DNA from: Larkinella terrae
GTDB taxonomy: Bacteria; Bacteroidota; Bacteroidia; Cytophagales; Spirosomataceae
Length of the DNA stretch: 64,000 nucleotides
Direction: 5' to 3'
Assembly (NCBI RefSeq): GCF_009668025.1
Contig: NZ_WJXZ01000002.1
Location: forward strand, 62,001-126,000
Made by a program: the position numbers and the translations under genes. Every line of letters begins with the position of its first letter. The stretch's first letter is position 1. The notes below the pieces were generated by a model. That model was given only the letters and a program-made list of their open reading frames with translations. It did no database searches and was not told where the DNA came from. Shown piece after piece: positions 1 through 63,013 of this stretch.

Positions 1-677
1 CGGTTTCCATTGCCCGGGCGTCCGACGGTTTATTCGATCCGACCATTGGGCCGTTGTCGCAACTCTGGCGACGGGCGGTTCGGCGGCAAATTTTCCCGAC
101 CAAACCGGAGCTCCGAAAAGCGCACCGGCTGGTTGATTACCGGTACATTGAATTTGACGCCGGTCAGCGAAAAATACGGTTGAAAAAACCGGGTATGCGG
201 CTCGATGTCGGCGGAATCGGGCAGGGATACGCCAACGATGAAGCGATGAACGTTCTTCAACAATTGGGTATAAAATCCGCTTTACTGGACATTGGCGGGG
301 ATATTCGGCTGAGCGATCCGCCACCGGGCGAACGCGGCTGGCGTATTCTGACCGGTTTTAGGGCCGATACCACCACCTTGTTTTTGAGCCACGTTGGCAT
401 AACCGCGTCGGGAGCCACGCACCGGTTTCTCGACCACAATGGCAAACGGTATTCCCATTTGATGAATCCACGAACGGGATTAGGACTGCTCCATCATGTA
501 CAGACGACGATTCTGGCCCCCGACGGCACCCAGGCCGACGCGCTGACAAAAGTCTTCAGCGTGGCTGGAATTCGAAAAAGTAGGCGGCTGGTGAAGCGGT
601 TTCCGGGTGTAACAGTTTGGATTACGGAAGAACGAAACGGAAAACCGCTCAAGTGGAGTTCAAAAAAAGACCTGTAA
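1..677 (+). CDS. apbE: FAD:protein FMN transferase (ApbE family), 5' end outside window
   Basis: The reading frame is open from base 3 and lacks its N-terminus, which lies upstream of the window. Visible ApbE-family signatures are DGLFDPTIGPL near the start, LDVGGIGQGYAND, ALLDIGGDIRL and the C-terminal part ITASGATHRF, YSHLMNPRTG, ADALTKVFSVAG, which carries the Mg/FAD-binding Asp-Ala region. The family transfers FMN from FAD to a Thr of flavoproteins (NQR/RNF subunits and periplasmic flavoproteins), usually outside the inner membrane. It converges on the exbD gene at 719-1111. The last codons and the TAA stop (675-677) lie inside a perfect palindrome (666-702), so the repeat forms the protein's C-terminal KDL. 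The family call is secure; the flavoprotein target is unknown. Confidence 0.9.
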   Translation, partial: VSIARASDGLFDPTIGPLSQLWRRAVRRQIFPTKPELRKAHRLVDYRYIEFDAGQRKIRLKKPGMRLDVGGIGQGYANDEAMNVLQQLGIKSALLDIGGDIRLSDPPPGERGWRILTGFRADTTTLFLSHVGITASGATHRFLDHNGKRYSHLMNPRTGLGLLHHVQTTILAPDGTQADALTKVFSVAGIRKSRRLVKRFPGVTVWITEERNGKPLKWSSKKDL

Positions 678-702
678 GGTTTTGAAAACCTTACAGGTCT
701 TT
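666..702. repeat. Perfect 37-nt palindrome, family B copy 1
   Basis: The sequence is an exact palindrome centred on base 684, core CCTGTAAGGTTTTG and its complement. The same 27-nt core recurs at 9731-9767. The five outer base pairs differ between the two copies (AAAGA/TCTTT here, CCAAA/TTTGG there) but are complementary in both. It overlaps the 3' end of apbE and could also act as a bidirectional terminator between convergent genes, though there is no long T tract. Confidence 0.9.
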
Positions 703-718
703 GAAACTTCCAGGACTC

Positions 719-1111
719 TTATTTCGAGGTCGCCATGACCATTTTGATGTTCAGTTTGGCACCGGTTTGCAATACATCGACCAGATCCTGAACGGCGAGC
801 GTTTTATCGACCCGCACCACAATCGTTGGTTCGAGAACGTCCTTCAAAACCGACTTCAGCTCCATTTCCAGATTTTCGGGCGAAATTGGAGTTTTATCGA
901 TAAAATACCGCTTTTCAGCATCGACCGAGAGCGTAATCTGTTTCTTGCTCAACTGCTGCGACGAAGCGGCTTTGGGTAGCAGTAGTTTAATGACGTTAGG
1001 GTTGGCCACCGTCGAGATAATCAGAAAGAACAACAGCAGGAAGAACATGATGTCGTTCAGGGAGGAAGTAGCAACCTCGGCGGCAAACTTGGTTTTTCTT
1101 CGGAATTTCAT
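719..1111 (-). CDS. ExbD/TolR-family biopolymer transport protein
   Basis: A 130-residue protein with a basic N-terminus (MKFRRKTKF), one membrane segment at about residues 19-38 containing the family's proton-path Asp (LNDIMFFLLLFFLI), and a periplasmic domain ending in VRVDKTLAVQDLVDVL. ExbD/TolR works with an ExbB/TolQ channel in the inner membrane to turn proton flow into work on TonB or TolA. It lies directly downstream of an ExbB-like gene (1189-1896), separated by an inverted repeat. It is a second, shorter ExbBD set, distinct from the one at 24.2-26.3 kb; no tonB or tolA lies beside it, so its partner is unknown. Confidence 0.9.
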   Translation of the reverse strand: MKFRRKTKFAAEVATSSLNDIMFFLLLFFLIISTVANPNVIKLLLPKAASSQQLSKKQITLSVDAEKRYFIDKTPISPENLEMELKSVLKDVLEPTIVVRVDKTLAVQDLVDVLQTGAKLNIKMVMATSK

Positions 1112-1123
1112 TGTCGGAGATTA

Positions 1124-1192
1124 TAGAGAAAAGACAAGAGAAAAAAGACGGTTTTTGGGTTTGTCTTTCGTCTCTTGTCTAACTTCTTTTAT
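1124..1192. repeat. Imperfect inverted repeat, family E copy 1 (GACAAGAGA arms)
   Basis: Left arm GACAAGAGA followed by AAAGAC pairs with GTCTTT followed by TCTCTTGTC. It fills the gap between the exbB and exbD genes on the minus strand and touches the exbB stop codon (1189-1191). Related arms occur at 7392-7445, 45125-45175 and 56563-56637. Confidence 0.75.
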
Positions 1193-1896
1193 CGTACTCT
1201 GGCGGCTTCGGTTGGTTTCTGCAGCACTTCCATGAACTCGAACGAGTTGATTTCCAGCTTCAGCGTGAATTTTTCGATCAGCATGTTGAGGAGGTGATAA
1301 CCGGTGTAGGCAATGACCCCGACGATCAGACCGGCGCCGGACGTGATCATTTTTTCGTACAGACCACCGGCGATGATTCCAACGCTGATGTTATCGGACA
1401 GCGAAATGTCGTAGAAAATCCGGATAATCCCCGAGATCGTTCCGATAAAACCCAGCATCGGGGCAATACCGGCAATGATTCCCAAATAGCCAAGATTCTT
1501 TTCCAGCCGGGAAAGTTCGATTTGCCCGACGGTTTCCAGCGTTCCTTCGATTTCCCGGATCGGCGAGCCAATGCGCCCGATGGCCTTTTCAAAAATCCGC
1601 CCGATCGAATTCCGCTGGTTTTTACAGAACGATTCAGCCGATTTGATATTTCCCTGCATCACCATATCTTTCACATTGTCGATAAAATTATCGTCGACTT
1701 TGGTATTGTTCCGGATGAACAGCCAGCGTTCGATAATCATGTACAAGGCCAGAAAGAATAGGAGTGAAATTGGAATCATGACCCAACCGCCTTTGGCGAC
1801 CAGATCGAAGAGTTGCATACTTTGGGCCGGGGCTGCGGCTGCTGCCGTGGAATCGACGGCCGGGCCACCAGCCGTTGGAACTTGTAATAGAATCAT
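1189..1896 (-). CDS. MotA/TolQ/ExbB proton channel family protein
   Basis: A 235-residue inner-membrane protein. An N-terminal Ala-rich segment (about residues 1-28) is followed by a first membrane span (GGWVMIPISLLFFLALYMII), a cytoplasmic loop with helices, and two more spans: LGIIAGIAPMLGFIGTISG and GLIVGVIAYTGYHLL. The second and third spans match the ExbB/TolQ pore region. It pairs with the ExbD-like gene downstream. A candidate -7 box on the minus strand lies at 2127-2134, which would give a leader of about 220 nt holding the inverted repeat at 1999-2114. Whether it drives TonB, Tol or another process cannot be read from the sequence. Confidence 0.9.
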   Translation of the reverse strand: MILLQVPTAGGPAVDSTAAAAAPAQSMQLFDLVAKGGWVMIPISLLFFLALYMIIERWLFIRNNTKVDDNFIDNVKDMVMQGNIKSAESFCKNQRNSIGRIFEKAIGRIGSPIREIEGTLETVGQIELSRLEKNLGYLGIIAGIAPMLGFIGTISGIIRIFYDISLSDNISVGIIAGGLYEKMITSGAGLIVGVIAYTGYHLLNMLIEKFTLKLEINSFEFMEVLQKPTEAARVR

Positions 1897-1998: not shown

Positions 1999-2114
1999 AA
2001 CCCTGTCAGCGCCGGGCCGTCGATACGGTTGAAAACCCTGACAGCGGTTTTGGTTTCATGATATATTAAGAACTTTTTAAACCGCTGTCAGGGTTTTCAA
2101 CCGCTGACAGGGTT
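1999..2114. repeat. Long inverted repeat, family C (ACCCTGACAGCGG)
   Basis: The right arm (2079-2114) is the reverse complement of the left arm once a 14-15 nt stretch (ccgggccgtcgata) inside the left arm is skipped. Both arms contain GGTTGAAAACCCTGACAGCGG-type sequence, resembling the core of family B. It lies 5' of the exbB gene and may fall in its leader. The unpaired block looks like a secondary insertion into an older perfect palindrome. Confidence 0.8.
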
Positions 2115-4185: not shown

Positions 4186-6594
4186 ATGAACCTGAGATTT
4201 TATCTCTTGGCTGCGGGATTGACCGCAATAGTATTTGGCACCAGGGCGCAAACGCCTTCAACCACTACCTACAAAGCCAACGACCGCTTCGAACAGATGG
4301 GCCAGTTGTTGCCCACACCCAACACCTTCCGGACGGCTTCCGGCGCGCCGGGCCGTGACTTCTTCCAAAACCGGGCGGACTACGATATTAAAGTAGAACT
4401 TGACGACGTTAATCAGAAAATTATTGGATCGGAAACCGTCACCTATTTCAATAACTCACCCGATGAGCTGAAGTATATCTGGTTGCAACTCGAGCAGAAT
4501 TACTTCGAAAAAGGCTCCATCGGGGGTATTACCGGAACCGGAAGTGTCAGCGCAACCGGAACCTCGACGGCCGCATTGGCAGAGCTGACCACCACGGCCG
4601 GACACCGACGCGGAAAGGCTTTTGACGGGGATTTTGGCTATAAAATTACGGCCGTGAAGGACAAAACCGGAAAACCGCTCAAGTATACGATCAACCAGAC
4701 GATGATGCGAATCGACCTGCCCGCGCCGTTGAAACCGGGGCAAAACTTCGTTTTCGGCGTCGACTGGAATTACAACATCACCGAATACTACGGCCGGAGC
4801 GGCTACGAATTTTTCCCGAAAGACGGCAATTATAATTACTTTATCGCTCACTGGTTTCCGCGGATGGCGGTTTACGACGATGTCAACGGCTGGCAACACA
4901 AGCAGTTTCTGGGGCAAGGCGAGTTCACGCTCATTTTCGGCAATTACAAAGTAGCGATCACAGTTCCGAACGACCACGTGGTGGCGGCATCAGGCGAGTG
5001 CCAGAATTATAAGCAGGTGTTGTCGGCGACGCAGGCCCAGCGGATGCAGAAAGCCGCCAATTCCAAAACGCCGGTGGTGATTGTGACGCAGGCCGAAGCC
5101 GAAGCCGCCGAAAAAGGAAAACCGACGGGCAGGAAAACCTGGATTTACAAAGCCGATAACGTCCGCGACTTTGCCTTTGCGTCATCTCGCAAGTTCATCT
5201 GGGATGCCATGCAAACCGATGTCTACGGCGACGGTCGCAAAATCTGGAGCATGTCCGTTTATCCGAAAGAAGGCAATCCGCTCTGGGGGCAATACTCGAC
5301 CCGGGCCGTGGAACATACGCTGAAATCGTACGGAAACCGTACCTTCAAGTATCCGTACCCGGTCGCCATTTCCTGCCACGCTACGCCGGGCGGGGGCATG
5401 GAATACCCGATGATCAGCTTCAACGGCGGGCGGCCCGAACCCGACGGCACCTACTCCGAAGCCGTGAAAGCCGGGATGATTGGGGTGATTATCCACGAAG
5501 TAGGGCACAACTTTTTCCCGATGATCGTCAACTCCGACGAGCGGCAGTGGGCCTGGATGGACGAAGGACTGAACACCTTCTGTCAGTATCTGGCCGAAAA
5601 AGAATGGGATTACAACTTCCCGACCCGGCGCGGGGAGCCGTACCAGATTGTCGACTACATGAAATCTGACCCATCGGTTCTATCGCCGATCATGACCTCG
5701 TCCGAAAATGTCATTAACCTGGGATCGAACGCCTACGCGAAACCGGCGGCCGCGTTGAACATCCTGCGCGAAACCGTCATGGGCCGCGAGCTGTTCGACT
5801 ACGCCTTCAAAGAATATTCCCGACGCTGGATGTTCAAAAACCCGACCCCGGCGGATTTCTTCCGGACGATGGAAGACGCTTCGGGCGTTGATCTGGACTG
5901 GTTCTGGAAAGGCTGGTTCTACGGTGTCGAGCCTGTTGATCAGGATCTGGTGGAGGTCGATTGGTTTACTTTGAACACCCAGAATCCCGAAGTGGAAAAA
6001 GCCCTTGCCCGCGCCGAAGCCGCCGGAAAAGCCAAAACCGTGAGCAAAATGCGGGATGCGGCTACTCAAGCGCAAACCGTGGTGGCGAAGGATTCGACGA
6101 TGAAGGACTTCTACAACCGCTACGATCCGTACGCGGTAACCGATGCGGATAAAAAGAAATACGAGGATTACCTGTCGTCGCTGACGGAAGACGAGCGTAA
6201 AACGCTGAACTCAAAAAATAACTTCTACACGCTGACACTGAAGAACAAAGGCGGTTTGCCGATGCCGATAATCGTGCGGATGGAGTTTGAAGATGGCACG
6301 GATTCGGTGGCTCGTTTTCCGGCGGAAATCTGGCGGTTCAACGACTTGCAGATCAACAAGGTGATTGCCACCAGCAAGAAAGTGACGCAGTGGACACTGG
6401 ACCCCTTCCAGGAGATTGCCGACATCGATACGGAGAACAACTCGTTCCCGCGCGTTTCAAAACCGACGCGTTTCCAGTTATTCAAGCAGCAGGGCGGTGG
6501 CCGTGGTGGTGCTCAGGGTCCGAACCCGATGCAGCAACAGCGGCAATCGACGCAACCACCGGCGCGGCAGGGCGGGGCGCCGAAGAATGAATAA
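4186..6594 (+). CDS. Secreted M1 family metallopeptidase
   Basis: An 802-residue protein if started at MNLRFYLLAAGLTA, which begins a clear signal peptide ending near TRAQ; an upstream in-frame ATG (4147) would put 13 polar residues before it. The gluzincin zinc site is HEVGH at residues 437-441, with the third ligand Glu460 in WMDEGLN (HExxH-x18-E). The exopeptidase loop appears as GGGMEYP rather than GAMEN, as in many Bacteroidota members. The C-terminus is Gly/Gln/Arg-rich low-complexity sequence. It is probably periplasmic or outer-membrane associated and degrades peptides. The stop TAA (6592-6594) lies in the arm of an inverted repeat and is followed at once by an in-frame TGA. Confidence 0.92.
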   Translation: MNLRFYLLAAGLTAIVFGTRAQTPSTTTYKANDRFEQMGQLLPTPNTFRTASGAPGRDFFQNRADYDIKVELDDVNQKIIGSETVTYFNNSPDELKYIWLQLEQNYFEKGSIGGITGTGSVSATGTSTAALAELTTTAGHRRGKAFDGDFGYKITAVKDKTGKPLKYTINQTMMRIDLPAPLKPGQNFVFGVDWNYNITEYYGRSGYEFFPKDGNYNYFIAHWFPRMAVYDDVNGWQHKQFLGQGEFTLIFGNYKVAITVPNDHVVAASGECQNYKQVLSATQAQRMQKAANSKTPVVIVTQAEAEAAEKGKPTGRKTWIYKADNVRDFAFASSRKFIWDAMQTDVYGDGRKIWSMSVYPKEGNPLWGQYSTRAVEHTLKSYGNRTFKYPYPVAISCHATPGGGMEYPMISFNGGRPEPDGTYSEAVKAGMIGVIIHEVGHNFFPMIVNSDERQWAWMDEGLNTFCQYLAEKEWDYNFPTRRGEPYQIVDYMKSDPSVLSPIMTSSENVINLGSNAYAKPAAALNILRETVMGRELFDYAFKEYSRRWMFKNPTPADFFRTMEDASGVDLDWFWKGWFYGVEPVDQDLVEVDWFTLNTQNPEVEKALARAEAAGKAKTVSKMRDAATQAQTVVAKDSTMKDFYNRYDPYAVTDADKKKYEDYLSSLTEDERKTLNSKNNFYTLTLKNKGGLPMPIIVRMEFEDGTDSVARFPAEIWRFNDLQINKVIATSKKVTQWTLDPFQEIADIDTENNSFPRVSKPTRFQLFKQQGGGRGGAQGPNPMQQQRQSTQPPARQGGAPKNE

Positions 6595-6683
6595 TGAACA
6601 ATTGACAATGTATAATGAAAGGAGGTGGAGGATTCTCTGAGATTCTTTCGGGCTCATTCATTGTTCCTTGTTCATTATTCATT
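6586..6683. repeat. Inverted repeat, family I (AATGAATAATGAACAA arms)
   Basis: Perfect 16-bp outer arms (6586-6601 and 6668-6683), with further partial pairing inside (CAATG, AATGA-type words). The left arm contains the last codon and the stop of the M1 peptidase, and the right arm ends just before tRNA-Pro. Confidence 0.8.
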
Positions 6684-6699
6684 AAGTTTGCACCCGATT

Positions 6700-6773
6700 C
6701 GGGATGTAGCACAGCCAGGTAGTGTACTTGCATGGGGTGCAAGGGGTCGTGGGTTCGAATCCCGCCATCCCGA
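6700..6773 (+). tRNA. tRNA-Pro (anticodon GGG)
   Basis: The acceptor stem CGGGATG (6700-6706) pairs with CATCCCG (6766-6772), with discriminator A at 6773. The anticodon stem CTTGC/GCAAG encloses loop ATGGGGT, giving anticodon GGG. The T arm is GTGGG TTCGAAT CCCGC. The 3' CCA is not encoded. A Rho-independent terminator follows at 6804. Confidence 0.95.
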
Positions 6774-6803
6774 CATATGGGACTTCTGCTATGGAAGGCA
6801 TTC

Positions 6804-6836
6804 AAACCCTGCACATCAAGTGCAGGGTTTTTTGTT
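6804..6836 (+). terminator. Rho-independent terminator after tRNA-Pro
   Basis: The stem AAACCCTGCAC/GTGCAGGGTTT with a 5-nt loop is followed by a run of T (TTTTTTGTTTT). It lies 31 nt downstream of the tRNA. Confidence 0.85.
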
Positions 6837-7008
6837 TTGCTACCTTGCATTCACAAAAACCAGCCCGGTTTTCCTTCTGCCTAAATTGTCTTGGCTTGCA
6901 TTAGCTAACTAGTTTCTTTCTCAATTTCAGGAATTTACCAAACACAAGTAATAAGGTTTTTCATCTGGAGAGCGGTTTCAAACTATCCGGTAAAAATATC
7001 GCGGAAAA

Positions 7009-7040
7009 TTTGCGTAGTTAAATGGCTACATATATATTTG
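7009..7040 (+). promoter_or_regulatory. Bacteroidota promoter of the arsR-like operon
   Basis: A -33 TTTG (7009-7012) is separated by 20 nt from a -7 TATATTTG (7033-7040), matching the TTTG/TAnnTTTG consensus. The start codon at 7059 lies about 12 nt after the predicted transcription start. The operator pair at 7014-7055 overlaps it. Confidence 0.7.
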
Positions 7041-7055
7041 TAGCCAAATAGCTAC
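7014..7055. promoter_or_regulatory. Twin ArsR-type operators (GTAG-N8-CTAC)
   Basis: Two dyads, GTAGTTAAATGGCTAC (7014-7029) and GTAGCCAAATAGCTAC (7040-7055), lie 26 bp apart. The pair as a whole is also an imperfect inverted repeat. One sits between the -33 and -7 boxes and the other covers the start site. This fits autorepression by the adjacent ArsR-family protein; binding is inference. Confidence 0.65.
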
Positions 7056-7058
7056 GCA

Positions 7059-7394
7059 ATGAATTTACGACGCGACGTATTCCAGGCCATCGCCGACCCG
7101 ACCCGGCGGGCGATTCTGCTGCTGGTGGCTTCGCACGCCATGACGGCCGGGGCCATAGCCGCCAATTTCGACACCGCCCGGCCGACGGTTTCCAAGCACC
7201 TCCAGATCCTGACCGAGTGCGAACTGCTGAAACAGGAACAAACCGGTCGGGAGATTTACTATCACCTCAATGGTCAGAAAATGAAAGAGATAGCCGACTT
7301 CCTCGAACCGTTCCGCAACCTGTGGGACGACCGGTTTAACAAACTGGAAGCCATCATGAAAAATTATACGCAGAAAAAAGAAGAAAGAGAATAG
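7059..7394 (+). CDS. ArsR-family winged-helix repressor
   Basis: A 111-residue regulator. It opens [20 protein letters not shown], typical of the ArsR group that is co-transcribed with SRPBCC (AHSA1) genes, and the recognition helix is in [20 protein letters not shown]. No metal-binding CxC motif is seen, so it is probably not a metal sensor. It heads a four-gene operon with SRPBCC, DoxX and YdeI-like genes and is likely autoregulated through the two dyads upstream. Its TAG stop (7392-7394) is the first triplet of an inverted-repeat arm. Confidence 0.88.
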
Positions 7395-7445
7395 ACAAGA
7401 GATTAACAAAATCAATGAAATCTTTCATCTTTTCTCTCTTGTCTA
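7392..7445. repeat. Inverted repeat, family E copy 2 (TAGACAAGAGA arms)
   Basis: Perfect 11-bp outer arms TAGACAAGAGA (7392-7402) and TCTCTTGTCTA (7435-7445), with an inner pair ATGAAA/TTTCAT. The first triplet is the stop codon of the arsR-like gene. It separates that gene from the SRPBCC gene within one apparent operon. Confidence 0.8.
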
Positions 7446-7475
7446 ACTGTCTGTTATACCAATCCAACAACTAGC

Positions 7476-7943: not shown

Positions 7944-7950
7944 CCGCATC

Positions 7951-9028: not shown

Positions 9029-9124
9029 ATTTTGCTCTAGTCTGCCCCCAACCCCCTAAAGGGGGCTTTAGCATCCGGTTTTTAAAGCCCCCTTTAGGGG
9101 GTTGGGGGCAGACTAGAGCAAAAT
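9029..9124. repeat. Family A inverted repeat copy 1, 42-bp perfect arms
   Basis: Arms 9029-9070 and 9083-9124 are perfectly complementary over 42 bp with a 12-nt loop. The family core is GCCCCCAACCCCCTAAAGG in the left arm. This copy is longer than its siblings because its flanks (GCTCTAGTCT/AGACTAGAGC) are complementary too. It lies in the 240-base gap before the DUF4256 gene. Other copies: 13409-13476, 17710-17775, 19179-19242 (decayed) and 62948-63013. Confidence 0.95.
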
Positions 9125-9730: not shown

Positions 9731-9767
9731 CCAAACCTGTAAGGTTTTGAAAACCTTACAGGTTTGG
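9731..9767. repeat. Perfect 37-nt palindrome, family B copy 2
   Basis: The same core as 666-702, with compensated changes in the outer five pairs. It begins one base after the DUF4256 stop codon and separates that gene from the convergent DUF4199 gene. Confidence 0.9.
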
Positions 9768-12398: not shown

Positions 12399-12500
12399 GT
12401 TTACGGTTTTCAGTATTCAGTTTACGGTTGGCTGACGCATTCTACTCGTACAGTTAATCCATGCGTCAGCAATTGAATACCGTAAACCGTCAACCATTAA
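12399..12500. repeat. Inverted repeat, family H (GCTGACGCAT core with TTTACGGT words)
   Basis: The inner stem GCTGACGCAT (12431-12440) pairs perfectly with ATGCGTCAGC (12461-12470). Outer sequences (GTTTACGGT, AGTATTCA) pair less perfectly with TGAATACCGTAAAC. It fills the whole gap between two operon genes and overlaps the stop of the isomerase gene (12497-12499). Confidence 0.75.
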
Positions 12501-13366: not shown

Positions 13367-13408
13367 TTATCAAGAGGTTTAGGAAAGTCATTTTTGAACT
13401 TTGAAATC

Positions 13409-13476
13409 TGCCCCCAACCCCCTGAAGGGGGCTTAAAATTGCAGGATGAGAAGCCCCCTTCAGGGGGTTGGGGGCA
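13409..13476. repeat. Family A inverted repeat copy 2, 26-bp perfect arms
   Basis: Arms 13409-13434 and 13451-13476. The core reads CCCCCTGAAGGGGG, the G variant, with the matching C change in the other arm. It begins 4 nt after the SDR stop codon on the minus strand and ends before the isomerase start. Confidence 0.95.
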
Positions 13477-13480
13477 AATT

Positions 13481-14242
13481 TTAAAACCCAATCGAATTAC
13501 CACCATCGACGGGCAACGAAGCACCGGTGATGTAGCGGGCGGCTTCCGACGACAGGAAAACGGCGGCATGGCCGATGTCTTCCGGTTTACCAAAATGGCC
13601 CATCGGCGTCCGGCGCATGGCCCGGTCGCGCCGGTCGGGATCACCGCCCATCGCTTTTTTGCTCATTTCGGTTTCGATGAAGCCCGGCGCAATGGCGTTC
13701 ACCCGGACGTTGTGAGGTGAAAACTCCGACGCCAGCACCTTCACCATACCTTCGACGCCCGACTTGGAAGCGGCATAAGCCGCCACCCGGTCGATGCCGT
13801 AATAGGCCGCCATCGACGAAATCATCAGGATCGAACCGCTTCGTCGGGGCACCATCCGCCGGGCACAGGCCCGAGTCAGTCCAAAAACCGCATTCAGATT
13901 GGTCTGAATGATGCGGCTGAATTCTTCGTCCGTGACTTCCAGGGCCGGTTTTTTGAGGTTGATACCGGCGTTGTTAACCAGAATATCAATCGGCCCGATG
14001 GCCCGTTCGATCTGTTCGACCAGCGGTTCCAGACCACTCAGGTCGGCCACGTCGTTGGTGAAATAATGGGCGTTTTTGCCCAACTCCGCGACAGCAGCCT
14101 GTAGCGGTTCTTCCCGGCGGCCGGTGATGACGACGGTGGCACCGGCCTGCACCATGCAGCGGGCAATGTCAAAACCAATTCCGGTGCCTCCTCCCGTAAT
14201 CAGGGCGAGTTTGCCGGTTAATGAAAATACAGTCTGATCCAA
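13481..14242 (-). CDS. SDR-family oxidoreductase, probable uronate-pathway (mannonate/gluconate) dehydrogenase
   Basis: A 253-residue classical short-chain dehydrogenase: nucleotide-binding TGGGTGIG (16-23), NNAG (90-93), and the catalytic Ser near 142-143 with Tyr156 and Lys160 (YAASK). It has a C-terminal PVDGGNSIGF tail. It resembles gluconate 5-dehydrogenase and SDR-type D-mannonate oxidoreductases. Its place directly after GH67 and near mannonate dehydratase suggests interconversion of fructuronate and mannonate, replacing UxuB. That specificity is inference from context. Confidence 0.85.
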   Translation of the reverse strand: MDQTVFSLTGKLALITGGGTGIGFDIARCMVQAGATVVITGRREEPLQAAVAELGKNAHYFTNDVADLSGLEPLVEQIERAIGPIDILVNNAGINLKKPALEVTDEEFSRIIQTNLNAVFGLTRACARRMVPRRSGSILMISSMAAYYGIDRVAAYAASKSGVEGMVKVLASEFSPHNVRVNAIAPGFIETEMSKKAMGGDPDRRDRAMRRTPMGHFGKPEDIGHAAVFLSSEAARYITGASLPVDGGNSIGF

Positions 14243-16391: not shown

Positions 16392-16401
16392 TTTATAAAA
16401 G

Positions 16402-16488
16402 TTGTTTCGCAGAGTTGAGCGGAGTTTAAAAGAGTTTAGCGGAGCCTCTGCGAAACTCTTTTAAACTCCGCTTAACTCCGCGAAATAA
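16402..16488. repeat. Inverted repeat, family D copy 1 (GAGCGGAGTTTAAAAGAG arms)
   Basis: Two 43-nt arms (16402-16444 and 16446-16488) with only a few mismatches and almost no loop. It fills the gap between the uxuA stop and the GH67 start. A second copy is at 20561-20661, where arm differences are compensated. Confidence 0.9.
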
Positions 16489-16489
16489 T

Positions 16490-17695
16490 TTAACCCTCCA
16501 ACGACCGTACAATCCCCAACTCCAACCCCCGCAGTTCTGCCAGCCCGCGCAAGCGACCAATGGCGGAATAGCCCGGATAGGTTTTCTTGTGCAGGTCGTC
16601 GAGCATCTGGTGCCCGTGGTCGGGGCGCATCGGAATGGCCGTGACGCCGACGCCGGTTTGGGCCCGCCGGTTTTGTTCCAGCACAATTTCCCTGATCACT
16701 GCGTACATGTCCACGTCGCCCGCCAGGTGGTCGGCTTCGTGAAAATTGAGCGGGTTTTCCTCCCGTTTCGTCGTTCGTAAATGAATGAAATGAATCCGAT
16801 TGCCAAACCGCCGGACGATGCCGGGCAGGTCGTTGTCCGGACGAATACCGAGCGAGCCCGTGCAAAACGTAATGCCGTTGGCGGTGCTATCGCAAGCGGA
16901 CATCAGTTCGGCCAGATCGGCTTCCGTGCTGACCACGCGCGGCAGACCCAGCAGCGGTTTTGGTGGATCGTCGGGGTGAATGCACAGGTTAATGCCTACC
17001 GATTCGGCTACCGGAGCGACTTCCCGAATGAAATAGTACAGATTATCACGGAGTTGTCGGTCGCGAATGGTGGCGTATTCGTTCAGTAATCCCTGAAAAG
17101 TCGACAGCGTAAAGGCTTCTTCCGAACCCGGCAAACCGAGCAAAACCGTGTTGGTCAACGTCGCAATTTCTTCCGGTGTCATTTGGGAAAACTTCCTGCG
17201 GGCGGCTTCCCGGACAGCCGGTTCGTAATCGGCTTCGGCGCCGGGACGTTTCAGAATGCAGAGGTCGAAAACCGCAAAATCTTCCCAGACAAACCGCAAC
17301 GCCAGCGAACCGTCCGGCATTTCGTAATTCAGGTTCGTCCGCGACCAATCGAGCACCGGCATGAAATTGTAGCAAACCGTGGTGATGCCACCTGCCGCCA
17401 GATTTCGCAGCGATTCCTTGTAATTTTCAATGTATTGCGCCCGCGTGGGTCGGCCTTTTTTAATGTCCTCATGAACCGGCAGACTTTCGACCACTGCCCA
17501 GTGCAGCGGAGAATACCGGCCGTTATCGGCTTCGATGAGCTGTTTCCGTTTTTCAATTTCCGCAATCGCCCAGACGTCGCCGACCGGAATCTGGTGCAAG
17601 GCCGTCACGACAGCGTTACAACCCGCCTGGCGGATGTCCATCAGCGAAACCGGATCGTGCGGTCCGAACCAGCGCATGGTTTGTAGCATTCCCAT
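16490..17695 (-). CDS. uxuA: Mannonate dehydratase
   Basis: A 401-residue cytoplasmic enzyme matching UxuA along its length: MRWFGPHDPVSL at the start, GCNAVVTALHQIPVG, CYNFMPVLDWSRT, NLCIHPDDPP, FCTGSLGIRPDNDLP, FIHLRTTKRE, FHEADHL and AIPMRPDHGHQM, which supplies the metal-binding His/Asp/Cys residues. It dehydrates D-mannonate to 2-keto-3-deoxy-D-gluconate, using Fe(II)/Mn(II). In this operon it would process glucuronate released by the GH67 and CE15 enzymes, after isomerisation by a UxaC not present in the window. Confidence 0.96.
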   Translation of the reverse strand: MGMLQTMRWFGPHDPVSLMDIRQAGCNAVVTALHQIPVGDVWAIAEIEKRKQLIEADNGRYSPLHWAVVESLPVHEDIKKGRPTRAQYIENYKESLRNLAAGGITTVCYNFMPVLDWSRTNLNYEMPDGSLALRFVWEDFAVFDLCILKRPGAEADYEPAVREAARRKFSQMTPEEIATLTNTVLLGLPGSEEAFTLSTFQGLLNEYATIRDRQLRDNLYYFIREVAPVAESVGINLCIHPDDPPKPLLGLPRVVSTEADLAELMSACDSTANGITFCTGSLGIRPDNDLPGIVRRFGNRIHFIHLRTTKREENPLNFHEADHLAGDVDMYAVIREIVLEQNRRAQTGVGVTAIPMRPDHGHQMLDDLHKKTYPGYSAIGRLRGLAELRGLELGIVRSLEG

Positions 17696-17709: not shown

Positions 17710-17775
17710 GCCCCCAACCCCCTGAAGGGGGCTTGTTGATCTGGAATCATAAAGCCCCCTTCAGGGGGTTGGGGG
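17710..17775. repeat. Family A inverted repeat copy 3, 24-bp perfect arms
   Basis: Arms 17711-17734 and 17752-17775, with the CCTGAAGG/CCTTCAGG variant as in copy 2. It begins 5 nt after the CE15 stop on the minus strand and lies before uxuA. Confidence 0.95.
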
Positions 17776-17780
17776 TAAAG

Positions 17781-19265
17781 TTATTTAAAATACTTTTTAG
17801 CAAATTCCAGAAAAACCGGCCAGTCGAGGCTGTCCACATGGCCACCTTCGTGGTTCCGAAACGCCACCTCACCCGAAACCAGGGCCACATCCGGCGCGGG
17901 CATTTCCCTGGTGCCAATGCCTTTTTTACCCAGCAACTCATACACCGGGCTGGCGGCCACACAGGCCAGAAACTCGCCGTGCGGATCGGCCCACTGGTCT
18001 TTGGTGCCACCGGTGATGAAAACCGGGCGGGGCGCCAGCAACGCAATCAGTTCATGGGCATCCACCGGCATGTCCTGCCAATGACCGCCGTATTTCAGGA
18101 AATTACCCGCCATCCAGTGGTACAAGCCCGAACCGGCTACATTATCGGGTGTTTCGCCGAAATTACGTTTTTCGAGCGATGCGCCCATTGACCCCGAGCA
18201 ACTCGCAAACACGATGGCCCAGCGCGGGTCCAGCGCCCCGGCCAGCAGAGCGGTTTTGCCCCAGCGCGAATGCCCCTGAATTCCAATCTGTTTGGCGTTG
18301 ATCGCTTTGTTAGTTTCGAGGTAATCGAGCGCGCGGCTGAGGCCCCAGCTCCAGGCCGACAGAACACCCCAGTCGTCGGGTTTGCGGTCGTTGCCTTCGT
18401 TCATTAGGCCAATAATTCCGGCGTGTAAACCGCCCCCGTTGTCCATCTGAATGGCGCCGGTGTTGAAAAGTGCCACCGCCCAGCCGGTTTCGATGATTTT
18501 CCGAATGGTGGCCGTCGGGGTTGGAAAAGCGCCCCAGACAATTACCATCAGCGGCACCGGGCCTGTCGCTTTGGCCGGGGTATAGAGCGTCAGTTCGACG
18601 CGAGGTGTGGCACTTGGGAATTTCGAATTGTCGATGCGGCCAGTAACCAGTTTTTTGTTGGCTTGCCCGCCCAGGGCAGTGTCCGGACTGGCGACCTCAA
18701 ACGTGACTTTGGGCGTGTCCCGGGGCGTTTTGCCGTAAATCTCGGTTTCGTAATCGCGCAGAATTTCGGGTCGGCGCTGTTTCCACCACACGCTGGCGGT
18801 TTTGACCGGTTTTCCATTTTTCAGCACCAACGGGTCCGGCAGCGTGTATCGGCTGGCGTTTGTTTCGTCGTAGTTCGTCCAGTTGCCCCAGCCCGACCGT
18901 ACGTGCGTATTGCCCGCTTCATCGTACCAGTTGGTCGAACCTTCGCGCTGCTTCAGGTGCTGGGGCCGTTTCGGATCATCAGAGGCTGGGGGCAAGGACG
19001 GCGTTTTGATTTGCAGCGTCGCCATTGTTTTCTCCCAGTCTTCCTGCGAAGCCGCCCGCATTTTATCCATGTAGGCCTTGCGTTCGTCCGGCGTCATTTT
19101 CGAAAAATCCGGACTTTGGGCGTTCGCGGTTTTTGCTGATAGAATTGTGAGCAGCAAAATCGTTGCTATCTTACATACTCCCCACCCCCTAAAGGGGGCT
19201 TTTTCATCCGGATTCGAAGCCCTCTTCAGGGAATGGGGGGCACAAGCGACTTTCAGTTTTTTCAT
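17781..19265 (-). CDS. CE15 glucuronoyl esterase with repeat-interrupted signal sequence
   Basis: A 494-residue alpha/beta hydrolase. The CE15 nucleophile motif is GHSRWGK with Ser333, and the catalytic His is His476 in NHEGGHVDS. The family cleaves ester bonds between lignin alcohols and 4-O-methyl-glucuronate of xylan. The start at 19265 lies 3 nt after the stop of the upstream gene, and no other in-frame ATG precedes the mature part. Between MKKLKVA and KIATILLLTILSAKTANAQ lie about 22 residues (8-29) encoded by a decayed family A repeat (19179-19242), inserted in frame. Removing it would leave a normal signal peptide. A TTG start inside the hydrophobic core is the only downstream alternative. 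Confidence 0.9.
   Translation of the reverse strand: MKKLKVACAPHSLKRASNPDEKAPFRGWGVCKIATILLLTILSAKTANAQSPDFSKMTPDERKAYMDKMRAASQEDWEKTMATLQIKTPSLPPASDDPKRPQHLKQREGSTNWYDEAGNTHVRSGWGNWTNYDETNASRYTLPDPLVLKNGKPVKTASVWWKQRRPEILRDYETEIYGKTPRDTPKVTFEVASPDTALGGQANKKLVTGRIDNSKFPSATPRVELTLYTPAKATGPVPLMVIVWGAFPTPTATIRKIIETGWAVALFNTGAIQMDNGGGLHAGIIGLMNEGNDRKPDDWGVLSAWSWGLSRALDYLETNKAINAKQIGIQGHSRWGKTALLAGALDPRWAIVFASCSGSMGASLEKRNFGETPDNVAGSGLYHWMAGNFLKYGGHWQDMPVDAHELIALLAPRPVFITGGTKDQWADPHGEFLACVAASPVYELLGKKGIGTREMPAPDVALVSGEVAFRNHEGGHVDSLDWPVFLEFAKKYFK
19179..19242. repeat. Family A inverted repeat copy 4, decayed and inside the CE15 coding region
   Basis: The left arm CCCCACCCCCTAAAGGGGG pairs imperfectly with GAAGCCCTCTTCAGGG plus TGGGGGGCA. 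The loop word CATCCGG is shared with copy 1. It is read through in frame as residues 8-29 of the CE15 esterase. Confidence 0.85.
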
Positions 19266-20560: not shown

Positions 20561-20661
20561 GTTGTTTCGCGGAGCTGAGCGGAGTTTAAAAGAGTTTAGC
20601 AGAGAAAATTAATTAACTCCGCTTAACTCCTTTTAAACTCCGCTCAGCTCCGCGAAATAAC
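20561..20661. repeat. Inverted repeat, family D copy 2
   Basis: Arms 20561-20604 and 20617-20661 share family D sequence (GAGCGGAGTTTAAAAG). Where copy 1 has GAGTTGAGC/GCTTAACTC, this copy has GAGCTGAGC/GCTCAGCTC, a compensated change. It lies between the RraA-like stop and the dehydratase start. Confidence 0.9.
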
Positions 20662-38154: not shown

Positions 38155-38241
38155 GATGGTTGTATGGTTTTAATGGCTAAATGGTTAAAATGGTTGCAAA
38201 TGTTCAGAAAGCCATTTAACCATTAAAACCATACAATCATT
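38155..38241. repeat. Inverted repeat, family F copy 1 (ATGGTTTTAATGG arms)
   Basis: Arms of about 27 bp, roughly 38156-38182 with 38211-38239, built from ATGG/TTAA words. It starts a few bases after the nuoB stop. A second copy (38789-38876) lies after nuoC. Confidence 0.8.
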
Positions 38242-38788: not shown

Positions 38789-38876
38789 GATTGAATGGCC
38801 GAATGGCTAATAAATGGTTAAAAAACAATAAACCATTTAACCATTTTCAACCATTCAGCCATTCAACAATTCAAAG
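38789..38876. repeat. Inverted repeat, family F copy 2 (TTGAATGGC arms)
   Basis: The left words TTGAATGGCCGAATGGC and AAATGGTTAAA pair with TTTAACCATTT and GCCATTCAACAA-type sequence. It occupies the nuoC-nuoD gap and ends 4 nt before nuoD. It is open in the nuoD frame, which creates a spurious 30-codon N-terminal extension. Confidence 0.8.
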
Positions 38877-45124: not shown

Positions 45125-45175
45125 AAGATGTGAGACAAGAGAATAAAGACTGATTGGTCGCTTGTCTCACATCTT
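45125..45175. repeat. Inverted repeat, family E copy 3 (AAGATGTGAGACAAG arms)
   Basis: Perfect 15-bp arms, AAGATGTGAGACAAG (45125-45139) and CTTGTCTCACATCTT (45161-45175), with further partial pairing outside (AGAGAA, TTCTC). It fills the nuoG-nuoH gap. Confidence 0.85.
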
Positions 45176-46926: not shown

Positions 46927-46930
46927 TGAG

Positions 46931-46983
46931 TTTAGGGTTTATAGTTTAGCGTTTTCAGTCAATGCTAGACTATAAACCCTAGA
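46931..46983. repeat. Inverted repeat, family G (GGGTTTATAGTTTAGC arms)
   Basis: Arms 46931-46950 and 46964-46983 pair over 20 positions with two G-T type mismatches. It occupies the nuoI-nuoJ gap. Confidence 0.8.
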
Positions 46984-46999
46984 CCTTAAATTATAAAAA

Positions 47000-56562: not shown

Positions 56563-56637
56563 TTAGACAAGAGACGTGAGACAAATTCGGGAAACGGGCA
56601 AAAGTCTTTTCTCTCTTGTCTAACGTCTCTTGTCTAA
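56563..56637. repeat. Inverted repeat, family E copy 4 (TTAGACAAGAGACG arms)
   Basis: The outer arm TTAGACAAGAGACG (56563-56576) pairs with CGTCTCTTGTCTAA (56624-56637), with AGAC words pairing inside. On the minus strand the right arm encodes the final residues LDKRR and the TAG stop of the glycosyltransferase at 56620-57699. Confidence 0.85.
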
Positions 56638-57699
56638 TTCCGTAATAATTCCGGCGAGTTTTTTGGCCGTTTGCTGCCAGCTGAACTTTTCGACGCGTCC
56701 ACGGCCTTTTTCAACCAGGGTTTTGCGGAGGTTTTCGTCGCCATAGAGTTTCTTCAGGCCGTCGCGGATGCTGCCGATGTTGTACGGATCGACGTAAACA
56801 CTCGCGTCGCCACAGACTTCGGGCAGGCTCGTAGTGTCGGAAACCAGCGTCGGGCAACCGCACGACATGGCCTCGAGTGGCGGAATGCCAAAGCCTTCAA
56901 AAAACGACGGATACGCGAAAAACAGCGCGTGCTGGTACAGATTGACCAGTTGCTCATCACTGATGTAGCCGGTAAAAATAATCGACGGATCGTTCTGGAT
57001 CATTTCTTTCAAACCCGTGTCGGCGAATACCTTGTGGGCGGCCCCGACAATTACCAGCTTGGTATCCGAAAATTTAGCCTCCTGAAACGCCTGAATCAGC
57101 CCCTTGAAATTCTTGCGCGGATCGAGCGACGAAACCGCCAGGATGTATTTGCCGTACGGGTTTTCGCCTTTCGTGCCGGGCGGATACCGGAAAATATCCG
57201 AAATGCTGGGGTAAATAATGTCCAGCGACGACCGGGGAATGTTGTAGCAGCGATGCAGATCATTCAGTGAATACTCGCTGATCGTCAAAACTTTATGGGC
57301 GGATTTTACGATTCGGGGAACCGTAAAATTGTAAAGCATTGAAAACTTTTTCGTAAACCATTCCGGGTGGAGATGAAAGGACAAATCCAGCACGGTAACA
57401 ATCTTATTCCGGTAAACGATGGGGGCTGTATTACACAGATTCAGCAATAACGGACTTCCCTGGCTGCGCAAATACGCGGGCATTTCGAGTTGTTCCCAGA
57501 TGTAGCCTTTGCTGCGGCCGTAAACCGTAGCTCCCAAATCCTGCGCAATGTCCTGTTGTAAAATATTATGCGGGGTTAAAAACGTAATATCCGGCAACAA
57601 ATCTTTCAATCGCATCCCGAGTTCAATGCCAACCCGCTGCGTTCCGGTAATGGGCTGGGTGAGAAACCGGGCATTGACAACAACTGATTTATGGTTCAT
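56620..57699 (-). CDS. Glycosyltransferase family 4
   Basis: A 359-residue GT-B enzyme. The N-terminal acceptor domain has FLTQPITGTQRVGIELGMRL, and the donor domain shows LAVSSLDPRKNFKGLIQAF, KLVIVGAAHKVF and YPSFFEGFGIPPLEAMSCG (E-x7-E). It resembles mannosyl/rhamnosyl transferases of EPS loci. The C-terminal residues LDKRR and the stop codon are supplied by an inverted repeat, so the original C-terminus has probably been replaced or extended. Confidence 0.92.
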   Translation of the reverse strand: MNHKSVVVNARFLTQPITGTQRVGIELGMRLKDLLPDITFLTPHNILQQDIAQDLGATVYGRSKGYIWEQLEMPAYLRSQGSPLLLNLCNTAPIVYRNKIVTVLDLSFHLHPEWFTKKFSMLYNFTVPRIVKSAHKVLTISEYSLNDLHRCYNIPRSSLDIIYPSISDIFRYPPGTKGENPYGKYILAVSSLDPRKNFKGLIQAFQEAKFSDTKLVIVGAAHKVFADTGLKEMIQNDPSIIFTGYISDEQLVNLYQHALFFAYPSFFEGFGIPPLEAMSCGCPTLVSDTTSLPEVCGDASVYVDPYNIGSIRDGLKKLYGDENLRKTLVEKGRGRVEKFSWQQTAKKLAGIITELDKRR

Positions 57700-60973: not shown

Positions 60974-60989
60974 GCAGTTCGGTTTTCCT

Positions 60990-61946
60990 TCAGGGAAGCA
61001 AATGCTTTTTGAAGGTCGATTTCATGGTTTTTAGCCCGGTTTTGTTGGTAATATTCTCCATTCTTTCCTTAATACCGGTTACTTTCCGAAAAAACTTATT
61101 CAGCGAATATTCCGTTGCCTGGCGGTTTTCGATGAAAAACCGGGGATGAACAATTTCCGTCAGCGGTTGAAGCGGACGGTTTGCCGTTAACTCCGTGTCT
61201 TTTTTGGTGTGGGTGGCGTTCTCGTCAAAACCGATGTTGGAGATCAGATTCTGGTTGGGGCAGATGCAGAGCCCGTAATTGATCCAGATGGCGTAGCACC
61301 ACTGGTAATCCCAGGTGTCGATCTGGCCGGAAAAAACGCCGTCGAACGCTTCGTTCCAGTATTGCTGAACTTTCGGGTCCGTAAACAACGATTTGATCAG
61401 GTTCAATTGCCGGAATTCCGGGTATGTCGTCATGTTCACATCGTATTTCTGCCAGGCCCGGCTCCAGCCCGCCCAACCCCAGACGTGGCAAATCTTGGAG
61501 TAAAAATACGAACCGTCGCCGTGCCACTGACCATGCTGAAAATTGACGCCCGTGATGTGCATAACACCCGGATTGTGCTGGTGGTACAGCAGATTTTCGC
61601 GGCAAAACGAAAAGAAAGTCGGATCGGGAAGGCAATCGTCTTCCAGAATAATGCCCATTTCGACTTGCCCGAAAAACCAGTCAATTGCCGTGCTGACGCC
61701 CCGCTTGCAACCCAGGTTCCGGGGCTGGATGAGCCGATGGACTTCGCAGGGCCAGTCGATCTCCTCCAGAAGGGCGATACACTGGGCAACTTGTTCCGAA
61801 TCGGCCGGTCGGTCGGGGCGCGGGCCGTCAATCGCTACGTAGAGCTGTTGCGGCTGCGCCAAACGAATCTGGTCAAGAACCTGGCGGGCATGACGGGGCC
61901 GGTTAAATAAAATGAATAGAACCGGAATATCGAGCGGTATAGACAC
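60990..61946 (-). CDS. GT-A-fold glycosyltransferase, EDD type
   Basis: A 318-residue protein beginning IPVLFILFNRPRHARQVLDQIR, with the nucleotide-sugar site VEMGIILEDDCLPDPTFFSF and conserved VWGWAGWSRAWQKYD. It belongs to a Bacteroidota family related to GNT-I/hemolytic protein HlpA-like glycosyltransferases. A close paralogue (63088-64000) lies two genes upstream, on the other side of the methyltransferase, so the pair arose by duplication. Its C-terminus is basic and possibly membrane-associated. Confidence 0.85.
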   Translation of the reverse strand: MSIPLDIPVLFILFNRPRHARQVLDQIRLAQPQQLYVAIDGPRPDRPADSEQVAQCIALLEEIDWPCEVHRLIQPRNLGCKRGVSTAIDWFFGQVEMGIILEDDCLPDPTFFSFCRENLLYHQHNPGVMHITGVNFQHGQWHGDGSYFYSKICHVWGWAGWSRAWQKYDVNMTTYPEFRQLNLIKSLFTDPKVQQYWNEAFDGVFSGQIDTWDYQWCYAIWINYGLCICPNQNLISNIGFDENATHTKKDTELTANRPLQPLTEIVHPRFFIENRQATEYSLNKFFRKVTGIKERMENITNKTGLKTMKSTFKKHLLP

Positions 61947-62021
61947 TGGAACAGAGATGGCCTGATATGTAACGCTTAACTGCTAATTTCGCAATTAAGT
62001 TACGGAATAAAGACGTCGCTT

Positions 62022-62834
62022 TCAAATAAGGTCTTTAAGAGGCTGTTTTCTCACGGAATCGTATACTTTTTGGAAGTCATCATTCAACATCGATTTGGCC
62101 GGATAGCGGTGCAGGTAGTTGTAGAACGCCACTTTCCGGGGGTGTGTGAACCAGCGGAGCCAGGTCGGGCTGATCGGTTTGGCCGTCATCAGGTGCAGGT
62201 CATGCCCGTCGCTGTAGAGTTGCAGGCCAAACCGTTTGGCGAGCCGGTGTAAGGATTCCAGGCTATAGAGGGCAACATGCTGACCGGTTTCGGGAATAAA
62301 ATACCACCAGGTTTCGGGAGTTACGTTCGGATTGGGCAGCACTTTGGTGGTAAACAGAATACTTTTACCGGCTTGTAACATTTGCTCAACGGTGCCAACC
62401 GGATTGGCGAGGTGCTCGAAGACTTCAAAAGCCGTGATTAACTCGTAGTTTTTAACTTCCGGCTGATCGGTCACATCGAAATGTTTGGCAAACAGATTCT
62501 CACAATATTGATCCAGACGAATAAAGGGAAATCCGCGGTCGCGCATCATCCGGACAAATAAACCGTATCCCCCGCCGTAATCCAGAAAAGGGCCTTCCGG
62601 CCGAAACCACTTCCGGATGACGGCCTCTACCGTCGGTGCCCAGTGCAGATTCCGCGAAACCAACCCAATGTCGAGCGACGTAATGGCCGACTCGTACGCT
62701 TCCGGCAGCCAGTAGGGCGTTTCGGTCTGGATAAAACCGCATTCGTGGCACCGGTAATACGTGACATCATATTTGAACAATACTTTCACCTGGAAAGACT
62801 CGCTCGAAGGGGTATTGCAAATATGGCAGGTCAT
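62022..62834 (-). CDS. Class I SAM-dependent methyltransferase with N-terminal zinc ribbon
   Basis: A 270-residue protein. The N-terminal CHIC...CHEC motif (about residues 3-34) resembles the zinc-binding part of sugar C-methyltransferases. The SAM site LDYGGGYGLFVRMM and the post-motif region ITAFEVFEHLANP follow. It probably modifies a sugar or polysaccharide component. It sits between two paralogous glycosyltransferase genes and has a family A repeat upstream. Confidence 0.88.
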   Translation of the reverse strand: MTCHICNTPSSESFQVKVLFKYDVTYYRCHECGFIQTETPYWLPEAYESAITSLDIGLVSRNLHWAPTVEAVIRKWFRPEGPFLDYGGGYGLFVRMMRDRGFPFIRLDQYCENLFAKHFDVTDQPEVKNYELITAFEVFEHLANPVGTVEQMLQAGKSILFTTKVLPNPNVTPETWWYFIPETGQHVALYSLESLHRLAKRFGLQLYSDGHDLHLMTAKPISPTWLRWFTHPRKVAFYNYLHRYPAKSMLNDDFQKVYDSVRKQPLKDLI

Positions 62835-62947
62835 AAGTTATCCTTTTGGTCCTGGTTAGTCCGGTTTTTGGTTTATCGTTTCAACATTGTACGCTTTTCG
62901 GTTTTATAAGAAACTGTCTGAAATTCAGATCTTCCCTTACTTCGGTC

Positions 62948-63013
62948 TGCCCCCAACCCCCTAAAGGGGGCTTTGAGACGCCGATTAAAGCCCCCTTTAG
63001 GGGGTTGGGGGCA
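62948..63013. repeat. Family A inverted repeat copy 5, 27-bp perfect arms
   Basis: Arms 62948-62974 and 62987-63013 with a 12-nt loop, the CCTAAAGG/CCTTTAGG variant as in copy 1. It lies in the 253-base gap between the methyltransferase gene and the upstream glycosyltransferase gene; the rest of that gap shows nothing else. Confidence 0.95.

What the first reader, a model, noticed from the sequence alone, without database searches (positions are those of the whole stretch)
666..63013. At least nine families of long hairpin repeats sit almost exclusively at gene junctions
The window holds about 17 long inverted repeats in nine sequence families (A-I): A 9029, 13409, 17710, 19179 and 62948; B 666 and 9731; C 1999; D 16402 and 20561; E 1124, 7392, 45125 and 56563; F 38155 and 38789; G 46931; H 12399; I 6586. 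The families share no obvious sequence, except B and C, but share one design: arms of about 11-43 bp, a short loop, and a position within a few bases of a stop codon, mostly inside operons. Families with unrelated sequence but the same architecture and site preference suggest one generating or selecting process, for example mRNA 3'-end protection, operon tuning or REP-like mobility. No REP-associated transposase is visible here.
Basis: partly seen in the sequence, partly recalled or inferred. Interest (0 to 1): 0.85.

Follow-up and report, generated by a model that had tools for sequence, protein, structure and literature searches.

The report
Fast-changing hairpin repeats behind stop codons
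A bacterium of the genus Larkinella carries many unrelated-looking DNA hairpins parked just behind the ends of its genes; between related species their letters change quickly, yet both arms change together, which points to DNA copying errors rather than selection on RNA as what keeps the arms matched.

Summary
In 1.264 Mb of this genome (16%) there are 160 long hairpins; six Markov-3 shuffled sets gave 0 or 1 each. 159 of 160 lie at gene junctions, with a median of 8 nt to the upstream stop between co-directional genes. They form 16 families plus 23 singletons, many with 7- to 10-nt periods in the arms. The genus is Larkinella. At orthologous junctions a family often stays, yet its arms differ between species while matching each other (0.91 within, 0.62 between); 203 of 294 double changes are Watson-Crick again. 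G-U mismatches are no commoner than A-C (40:53 own, 23:27 relatives; tRNA control 14:0), and there is no T-tract. So palindromy is probably kept at DNA level, most likely by replication template switching between arms. Unrelated families sit at the same orthologous junctions and behind 43 similar gene ends of one array. How families spread is unknown; hairpins near the Y1-transposase genes are mostly other types. Family A looks REPIN-like.

The parts
666..702 (.). family B hairpin, convergent junction, overlaps the end of gene 54-677
   Evidence: 100% arms, 1-nt loop; ortholog sites in G001 and G005 (G004 weaker) carry different but paired arms
1119..1193 (-). family E hairpin (imperfect), spans the stop of gene 1189-1818
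   Evidence: 74% arms, score 12
1999..2103 (-). family C hairpin (arms 2026-2050/2079-2103, outer repeat from 1999)
   Evidence: 100% arms; C-type in G003 and G006, none in G001, G004, G005
6586..6683 (+). family I (heptad AATGAAY) hairpin containing the stop of gene 4186-6594
   Evidence: 16-nt arms, 66-nt loop
7392..7445 (+). family E hairpin starting with the TAG stop of gene 7059-7394
   Evidence: 11-nt arms
9029..9124 (+). family A hairpin, 42-nt perfect arms
   Evidence: MFE -86.2, z -14.3
9731..9767 (.). family B hairpin 1 nt after the stop of gene 9163-9729, convergent junction
   Evidence: 100% arms
12399..12494 (-). family H (GTTTACG heptads) hairpin; other families or a short gap at this junction in relatives
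   Evidence: score 12
13400..13485 (-). family A hairpin overlapping the stop of gene 13481-14242
   Evidence: 94% arms; A in G003 and G006, none in five others
16399..16491 (-). family D hairpin; ortholog hairpins rewritten, loop inverted relative to four relatives
17711..17775 (-). family A hairpin; junction is 7-10 nt long in G001, G004, G005
19179..19240 (-). decayed family A hairpin
   Evidence: score 10
20561..20661 (-). family D hairpin; D' (ACACAGAG/ACACAGGG) in G003 and G004
38156..38240 (+). family F (ATGGTT) hairpin 4 nt after the stop of the NuoB-type gene
   Evidence: PF01058; F-type repeats with different arms in relatives
38789..38872 (+). family F hairpin, next junction of the complex I operon
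   Evidence: score 13; z -8.0
45125..45175 (+). family E hairpin before the NuoH-type gene
   Evidence: 94% arms; PF00146; nearly the same in G008
46930..46984 (+). family G (GTTTAGG heptads) hairpin; 9-10 nt junction in G002, G005, G006
56563..56637 (-). family E hairpin spanning the stop of gene 56620-57699
   Evidence: 95% arms
62943..63018 (-). family A hairpin
   Evidence: 94% arms

Best explanation
These are short DNA hairpins that occupy the slot behind stop codons, are tolerated there, and are rewritten at DNA level: during replication a polymerase switches template from one arm to the other, so that mutations in one arm are copied into the other, arms are lengthened or replaced in blocks, and the loop can be flipped. 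Slippage within the 7- to 10-nt units of the arms would change their length and word order. This keeps each hairpin nearly perfect while its sequence drifts fast and differs between species. Shown: abundance, site, concerted arm change, absence of G-U preference, absence of a T-tract, turnover of families at one junction. Inferred: template switching as the agent, slippage, and tolerance (not need) as the reason for the site. Not explained: how a family reaches new loci.
For: Arms match within a hairpin (0.91) far better than between orthologous hairpins (0.62, best of four arm comparisons), within > between in 34 of 42. On co-directional orthologous junctions 294 of 3089 base pairs changed on both sides, 123 expected if independent, and 203 of the 294 are again Watson-Crick. 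Mismatches left in arms: G-U 40 vs A-C 53 (111 co-directional own hairpins), 31 vs 42 without the paralog array, 23 vs 27 in 55 hairpins of relatives, 151 vs 155 among single changes; tRNA acceptor stems 14 vs 0 (22 tRNAs). Block rewriting is visible at junction 13|14: G003 has a perfect 27-nt inverted copy where G006 (92.4% nt identity over aligned blocks of the region) has an imperfect one, and G002 and G005 each have outer arms matched to each other in their own way. Loops match better inverted between species at two junctions. Such footprints are described for template switching: arm homogenisation and spacer inversion (PMC8604942, passages read), creation and upkeep of RNA hairpins (PMC8794818, abstract read).
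Against: Hairpins were picked for being paired, which raises the within-arm value. Comparisons share species and junctions and are not independent, and repetitive arms may be misaligned. Loop inversion is weak evidence: for same-family hairpins at different loci direct and inverted loops are also about equal (18 and 21 of 702), and only two junctions show it. Convergent hairpins had G-T 23 vs A-C 9 on the arbitrary + strand (p 0.02), unexplained. Template switching alone does not carry a family to dozens of loci, nor explain why word hairpins hug the stop even in long gaps (6 of 6 within 17 nt).
Confidence: 0.6

Rival explanations
1. REPIN- or MITE-like mobile families: each hairpin is a copy inserted by a transposase acting in trans; arms match because copies are recent, and junction differences reflect insertions and losses.
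For: Copy numbers jump between sister genomes: family A 175 matches in own, 123 in G006, 61 in G003, but 3 in G008 (the closest relative), 2 in G002 (94% identical to G006) and 0 in G001, G004, G005; family I 178 in own, 90 in G008, 0-4 in seven others. A hairpin in some species and a hairpin-free junction of 30 nt or less in others at 8 of 69 hairpin-bearing junctions. Family A consists of two inverted small palindromes, as a REPIN does (sequence). Y1-transposase genes are in 9 of 9 Larkinella genomes.
Against: In loci of about 3.3 kb around the three Y1 genes of this genome, the nearest hairpins (score >=12) are other types (GTCGCGTAGCGAC at L031; a CGAGGGTTGCACCCCCGG type and one more at L033; none at L032); one E-type hairpin lies about 1 kb from the L033 gene. 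Families 6 and 15 (15 resembles part of the L033 hairpin by eye) sit mid-intergenic (median 95 nt from a stop). G007 has Y1 genes and no family D. The same family at the same site in most species with arms different in each (NuoB junction, junction 16|17) is not what fresh insertion gives. No target-site duplication was recognised by eye.
Confidence: 0.27
2. Functional 3' hairpins: they protect mRNA 3' ends, tune operon stoichiometry or stop transcription, and selection on RNA pairing keeps the arms matched.
For: Very stable RNA folds (10 of 10 tested, z -5.0 to -14.3). Site directly behind stops, inside operons, enriched at convergent ends (37 of 159, one-sided p 0.003) and depleted between divergent genes (11 of 159, p 0.002). 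Clusters of hairpins have been proposed to end transcription (PMC8355165, listing only).
Against: G-U is not preferred over A-C, while tRNA stems show it. No T-tract: 2.39 T in 8 nt after vs 2.68 before the hairpin; 9 of 111 with 5 or more T; terminator-like sites in 6500-21700 are 26 vs 23.0 +/- 5.1 expected. At 58 of 100 own-hairpin junction pairs the relative has no hairpin of score 14 or more.
Confidence: 0.1
3. Stop-codon junctions are insertion hot spots that different families hit again and again (for example single-stranded or R-looped DNA at gene ends), and the arms are made at insertion by fold-back synthesis.
For: Unrelated families at one orthologous junction (13, 72, 298 and 218); behind 43 gene ends of one array about eight hairpin types (sorted by eye) or short gaps follow similar ...SLRSE stops; word hairpins stay next to the stop even with over 100 nt free (6 of 6).
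Against: The same family is kept at several junctions across most of the genus sample, so much of the change is in place. No intermediate or enzyme is known.
Confidence: 0.25

Closest known systems
REP / REPIN elements with RAYT transposases (PMC3116915, PMC3733652: passages read)
   Same: Palindromic, extragenic, many copies, preferring co-directional and convergent junctions, can supply stop codons; compensatory changes between REPIN halves were noted; Y1-transposase genes are in this genome.
   Different: Many families per genome, word-like arms without fixed sequence, placed at stop codons rather than at random in extragenic space, and mostly not the hairpins near the Y1 genes. Family A alone is close to a REPIN.
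Template-switch (quasipalindrome) hairpins (PMC8794818 abstract, PMC8604942 passages)
   Same: Arm homogenisation, multi-base paired changes, possible loop inversion.
   Different: Described for RNA genes, yeast coding DNA and reporter sites (the last from a listing); here it would act on a genome-wide population of repeat families. The yeast paper says short inverted repeats in proteobacterial non-coding DNA are more conserved than their surroundings; here arm bases differ at about 19% (9 hairpin comparisons) where aligned blocks of the region differ by about 8% (G006-G003).
Heptameric intergenic repeats (TAACTGA in Beggiatoaceae, Cyanobacteria, Bacteroidetes; PMC4679880 abstract and one section read; cyanobacterial STRR recalled)
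   Same: Seven-base units, intergenic, turnover between relatives.
   Different: Those are direct arrays, mostly before start codons in the main genome described; here degenerate heptads form hairpin arms behind stop codons.
Intrinsic terminators
   Same: Hairpin downstream of a stop codon.
   Different: No T-tract, arms of 16 to about 50 nt, often inside operons, family repeats.
Coding palindromes in Nematomorpha mitochondria (PMC6649704, listing only)
   Same: Numerous long perfect inverted repeats in one lineage.
   Different: Eukaryotic organelle, inside genes.

Membership tests
REP/REPIN with RAYT | Y1/RAYT-type transposase gene in the genome | tested here: met
   PF01797: 3 genes in own genome, 1-7 matches in each of 9 Larkinella genomes; RAYT versus IS200 not resolved
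REP/REPIN with RAYT | the family's repeats flank the RAYT gene | tested here: not met
   Within about 1.5 kb, score >=12: L031 and L033 hold other hairpins nearby, L032 none; one E-type hairpin about 1 kb from the L033 gene
REP/REPIN with RAYT | conserved family sequence across copies | tested here: not met
   Word families keep units, not sequence; family A does keep its core
REP/REPIN with RAYT | GTAG or CGTC tag at one end | not tested
   no systematic scan made
Template-switch-maintained hairpins | arms homogenised within a lineage | tested here: met
   0.91 within vs 0.62 between, 42 comparisons
Template-switch-maintained hairpins | paired changes in excess of independence, without RNA wobble preference | tested here: met
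   294 double changes vs 123 expected, 203 Watson-Crick; single changes G-U 151, A-C 155
Template-switch-maintained hairpins | loop (spacer) inversion | tested here: inconclusive
   7 inverted, 13 direct, 37 neither of 57 pairs, inverted at two junctions; control 21, 18, 663 of 702
Template-switch-maintained hairpins | events seen in dividing cells | not testable with these tools
   needs mutation accumulation or a reporter
Intrinsic terminators | T-tract after the stem | tested here: not met
   9 of 111 with 5 or more T in 8 nt; mean not above the 5' side
RNA structures under selection | G-U tolerated over A-C on the sense strand | tested here: not met
   40:53, 31:42, 23:27, 151:155; tRNA control 14:0
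Heptameric repeats | 7-nt period | tested here: met
   best lag 7 in families 1, 5, 8, 9 of 13 tested; five others best at 8-10 above the 99% shuffle level; z 5.6 at lag 7 over 29 representatives; mononucleotide shuffles only
Heptameric repeats | direct arrays without inverted partner | tested here: not met
   of 317 word runs 195 are in or near a detected hairpin, 68 have a partner, 54 are solo; reversed control 13

The most novel reading that the evidence does not exclude
A class of hairpin repeat that needs no transposase of its own: gene ends seed short fold-back copies, template switching makes perfect palindromy an attractor, slippage in 7- to 10-nt units gives each species its own vocabulary, and stop-codon slots are filled, rewritten, swapped and emptied over and over.
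Probability: 0.3. Interest if true: 0.82.

Novelty: new variant of a known kind. Interest (0 to 1): 0.68.

Why it matters
Covarying stems are usually read as proof of a functional RNA. Here is a natural, genome-wide set in which stems covary strongly yet show no wobble preference, so it could serve as a test bed for telling mutation-driven from selection-driven covariation. It also gives a dense natural record of what looks like template-switch mutation in bacteria, and asks why gene 3' ends collect hairpins.

Tried and rejected
Rfam at gathering thresholds: only the tRNA. Bidirectional terminators: rejected (no T-tract). Flank copying outside family A cores as proof of fold-back synthesis: 6 of 18 copies extend 5 nt or more vs 12% in swapped flanks, but some extensions are a longer form of the element, so it is not used as proof. 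Wide sharing of words across phyla (my recollection before testing): not supported for the two words tried; the exact family-I 16-mer is in 6 of 296 Bacteroidota genomes, own included, and of 80 listed stretches (107 found, scan stopped at its limit) with the family-D word 79 are Larkinella and one is a match inside an ORF of a Chloroflexi MAG without a hairpin there. Phages as carriers: family D word 0 viral contigs, family A word 9; in short stretches of three of these nine no hairpin reached score 14, and two of the matches lie in ORFs. An autonomous element for family A was not searched for beyond PF01797 and these contigs. A search of papers for six typed arm-like words: 0 papers. That I know of no print description rests on searches of an open-licence library only. 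The class of 'word families' (groups 1, 2, 4, 5, 7, 8, 9, 10, 13, 14) was defined after seeing the arms. A script error (KeyError) and a missing file were repaired.
Full report
Where it is. The window is G000:C12:62001-126000 of a 7.85 Mb genome.

Is it real. All 19 listed places hold inverted arms. In own sequence joined from the window and 60 fetched stretches (1.264 Mb, 16% of the genome) 160 hairpins score at least 16; six shuffled sets give 0 or 1. One has its midpoint inside a gene; 68 and 43 lie between co-directional genes, 37 between convergent and 11 between divergent genes. Divergent junctions are depleted and convergent ones enriched. In co-directional junctions the median distance is 8 nt to the upstream stop and 42 nt to the next start; 93 of 111 are closer to the stop. 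Gene calls come from a simple caller of my own, so starts are uncertain, stops much less so.

Families. Arms fall into 16 groups of two or more plus 23 singletons (group 2 merges D, D' and E words, group 1 several AT-rich words). Classes differ in placement. The word families (I, D/E, F, H, 7, M, K, J, 13, 14; a class I defined after seeing the arms) are within 20 nt of a stop in 81 of 82 cases with an adjacent stop; families 6 and 15 (median 95 nt) and 12 (103 nt) sit well away; A and C are in between. Six word hairpins in co-directional gaps with at least 100 nt to spare still sit -9 to 17 nt from the stop. Arms have internal periods: 7 nt is best in groups 1, 5, 8 and 9, and 8-10 nt in groups 0, 2, 4, 7 and 10 (9 of 13 groups tested above the 99% shuffle level at such lags); over one arm per group or singleton (29), lag 7 has z 5.6 (mononucleotide shuffles).

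Similar gene ends in an array. In C6:232-412 kb 65 genes have paralogs there, the twelve listed having 44 hits each (a look of MacB/FtsX-type permeases is recalled, not tested). I read 43 gene ends of the ...SLRSE type; what follows the stop is family I, M, D', 7, 13, 14-like, A or another hairpin, a hairpin-like remnant, or a short gap (sorted by eye). Array copies are not independent, so key counts were repeated without the array: 134 hairpins, medians 9 and 45 nt, G-U 31 and A-C 42.

Orthologous junctions. The window region is syntenic in six relatives and partly in G008. Over 400 own/relative junction pairs both have a hairpin in 42, own only in 58, relative only in 23, neither in 277 (score >=14). 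At the NuoB junction F-type repeats persist but arms differ between species (scores 10-23); at 16|17 family D or D' persists in 7 of 8 (none detected in G008); at 13|14 own has H, G002, G003 and G005 a GAACGCGGATTGAACGGATG-type (G006 a weaker one), G008 another, and G001 and G004 have 14-15 nt; at 44|45 three relatives have 9-10 nt. Among species pairs with two hairpins of score >=16, 43 have related arms and 12, at 6 junctions, unrelated ones; of these six junctions 16 and 19 are variants of the D group.

How arms stay matched. Within-hairpin similarity is 0.91, best between-species similarity 0.62; the first value is inflated because hairpins were chosen for pairing, the second is not. In 189 co-directional comparisons at 27 junctions, 3089 base pairs, 294 changed on both sides (123 expected) and 203 of these are Watson-Crick again. 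If RNA pairing were selected, G-U should outlast A-C on the sense strand; it does not in four overlapping counts (40:53; 31:42; 23:27; 151:155), whereas tRNA acceptor stems from the same sequences give 14:0 (22 tRNAs; the stem register was chosen counting G-U as paired, a mild bias). For convergent hairpins, on the arbitrary + strand, G-T 23 vs A-C 9 is unexplained. Seven of 57 same-family pairs have loops that match better inverted, at two junctions, but same-family loops at different loci are also split about equally, so this supports repeated flipping only weakly. Aligned blocks of the G006 and G003 regions are 92.4% identical while arm bases differ at 18.7% (9 hairpin comparisons). Outside detected hairpins, word runs also occur with a weaker partner (68) or solo (54; reversed control 13 in all), which fits decay of hairpins.

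Mechanism. Replication template switching between arms gives these footprints (PMC8604942, PMC8794818). I put it at 0.6. The site preference may be tolerance, since divergent junctions and starts are avoided, or a hot spot; it is not settled. Spread between loci is not explained. The Y1-transposase genes have mostly other hairpins near them.

Spread of the phenomenon. Density is about 127 per Mb in own sequence, 116 in a stretch of G005, 50 in G001, 125 in same-family G012 and 75 in G022 (in both, many are short-loop hairpins of another kind), and 0-13 per Mb in three more distant Bacteroidota; the stretches are 77-294 kb and not random, the last three having been chosen around family-I word matches. 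Family D is in 8 of 9 Larkinella genomes with zero control matches; family I is abundant only in own and G008; family A is in 23 of 121 genomes of the family with large jumps in number. So vocabularies turn over at genus scale.

Verdict. A real and unusual population of hairpins, of which family A is close to REPINs and the rest are best seen as a new variant of hairpin repeat, probably kept up by template switching.

Noticed in passing
G000:C6:234000-390000 (loci L045-L053): A tandem array of some 40 large paralogous genes, most about 780-885 aa, ending ...SLRSE/SLKTE; an unusual number of paralogs in one place.
   Followed up: partly
L031, L033: Two of three Y1-transposase genes have small hairpins a few hundred nt away (GTCGCGTAGCGAC; CGAGGGTTGCACCCCCGG), possibly the true REP families of this genome.
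   Followed up: partly
window 37606-47518: Complex I operon with four junctions carrying hairpins in this genome (after 38151, 38787, 45115, 46926), weaker or absent in some Larkinella relatives.
   Followed up: partly
L309, L313, L316: Three IMG/VR contigs carry two family-A core matches exactly 1,643 bases apart, apparently the same phage region.
   Followed up: no
G001:C1:453586-453918: The single Y1-transposase match in G001 has an internal TAG, yet family D is still present in that genome (39 matches).
   Followed up: no
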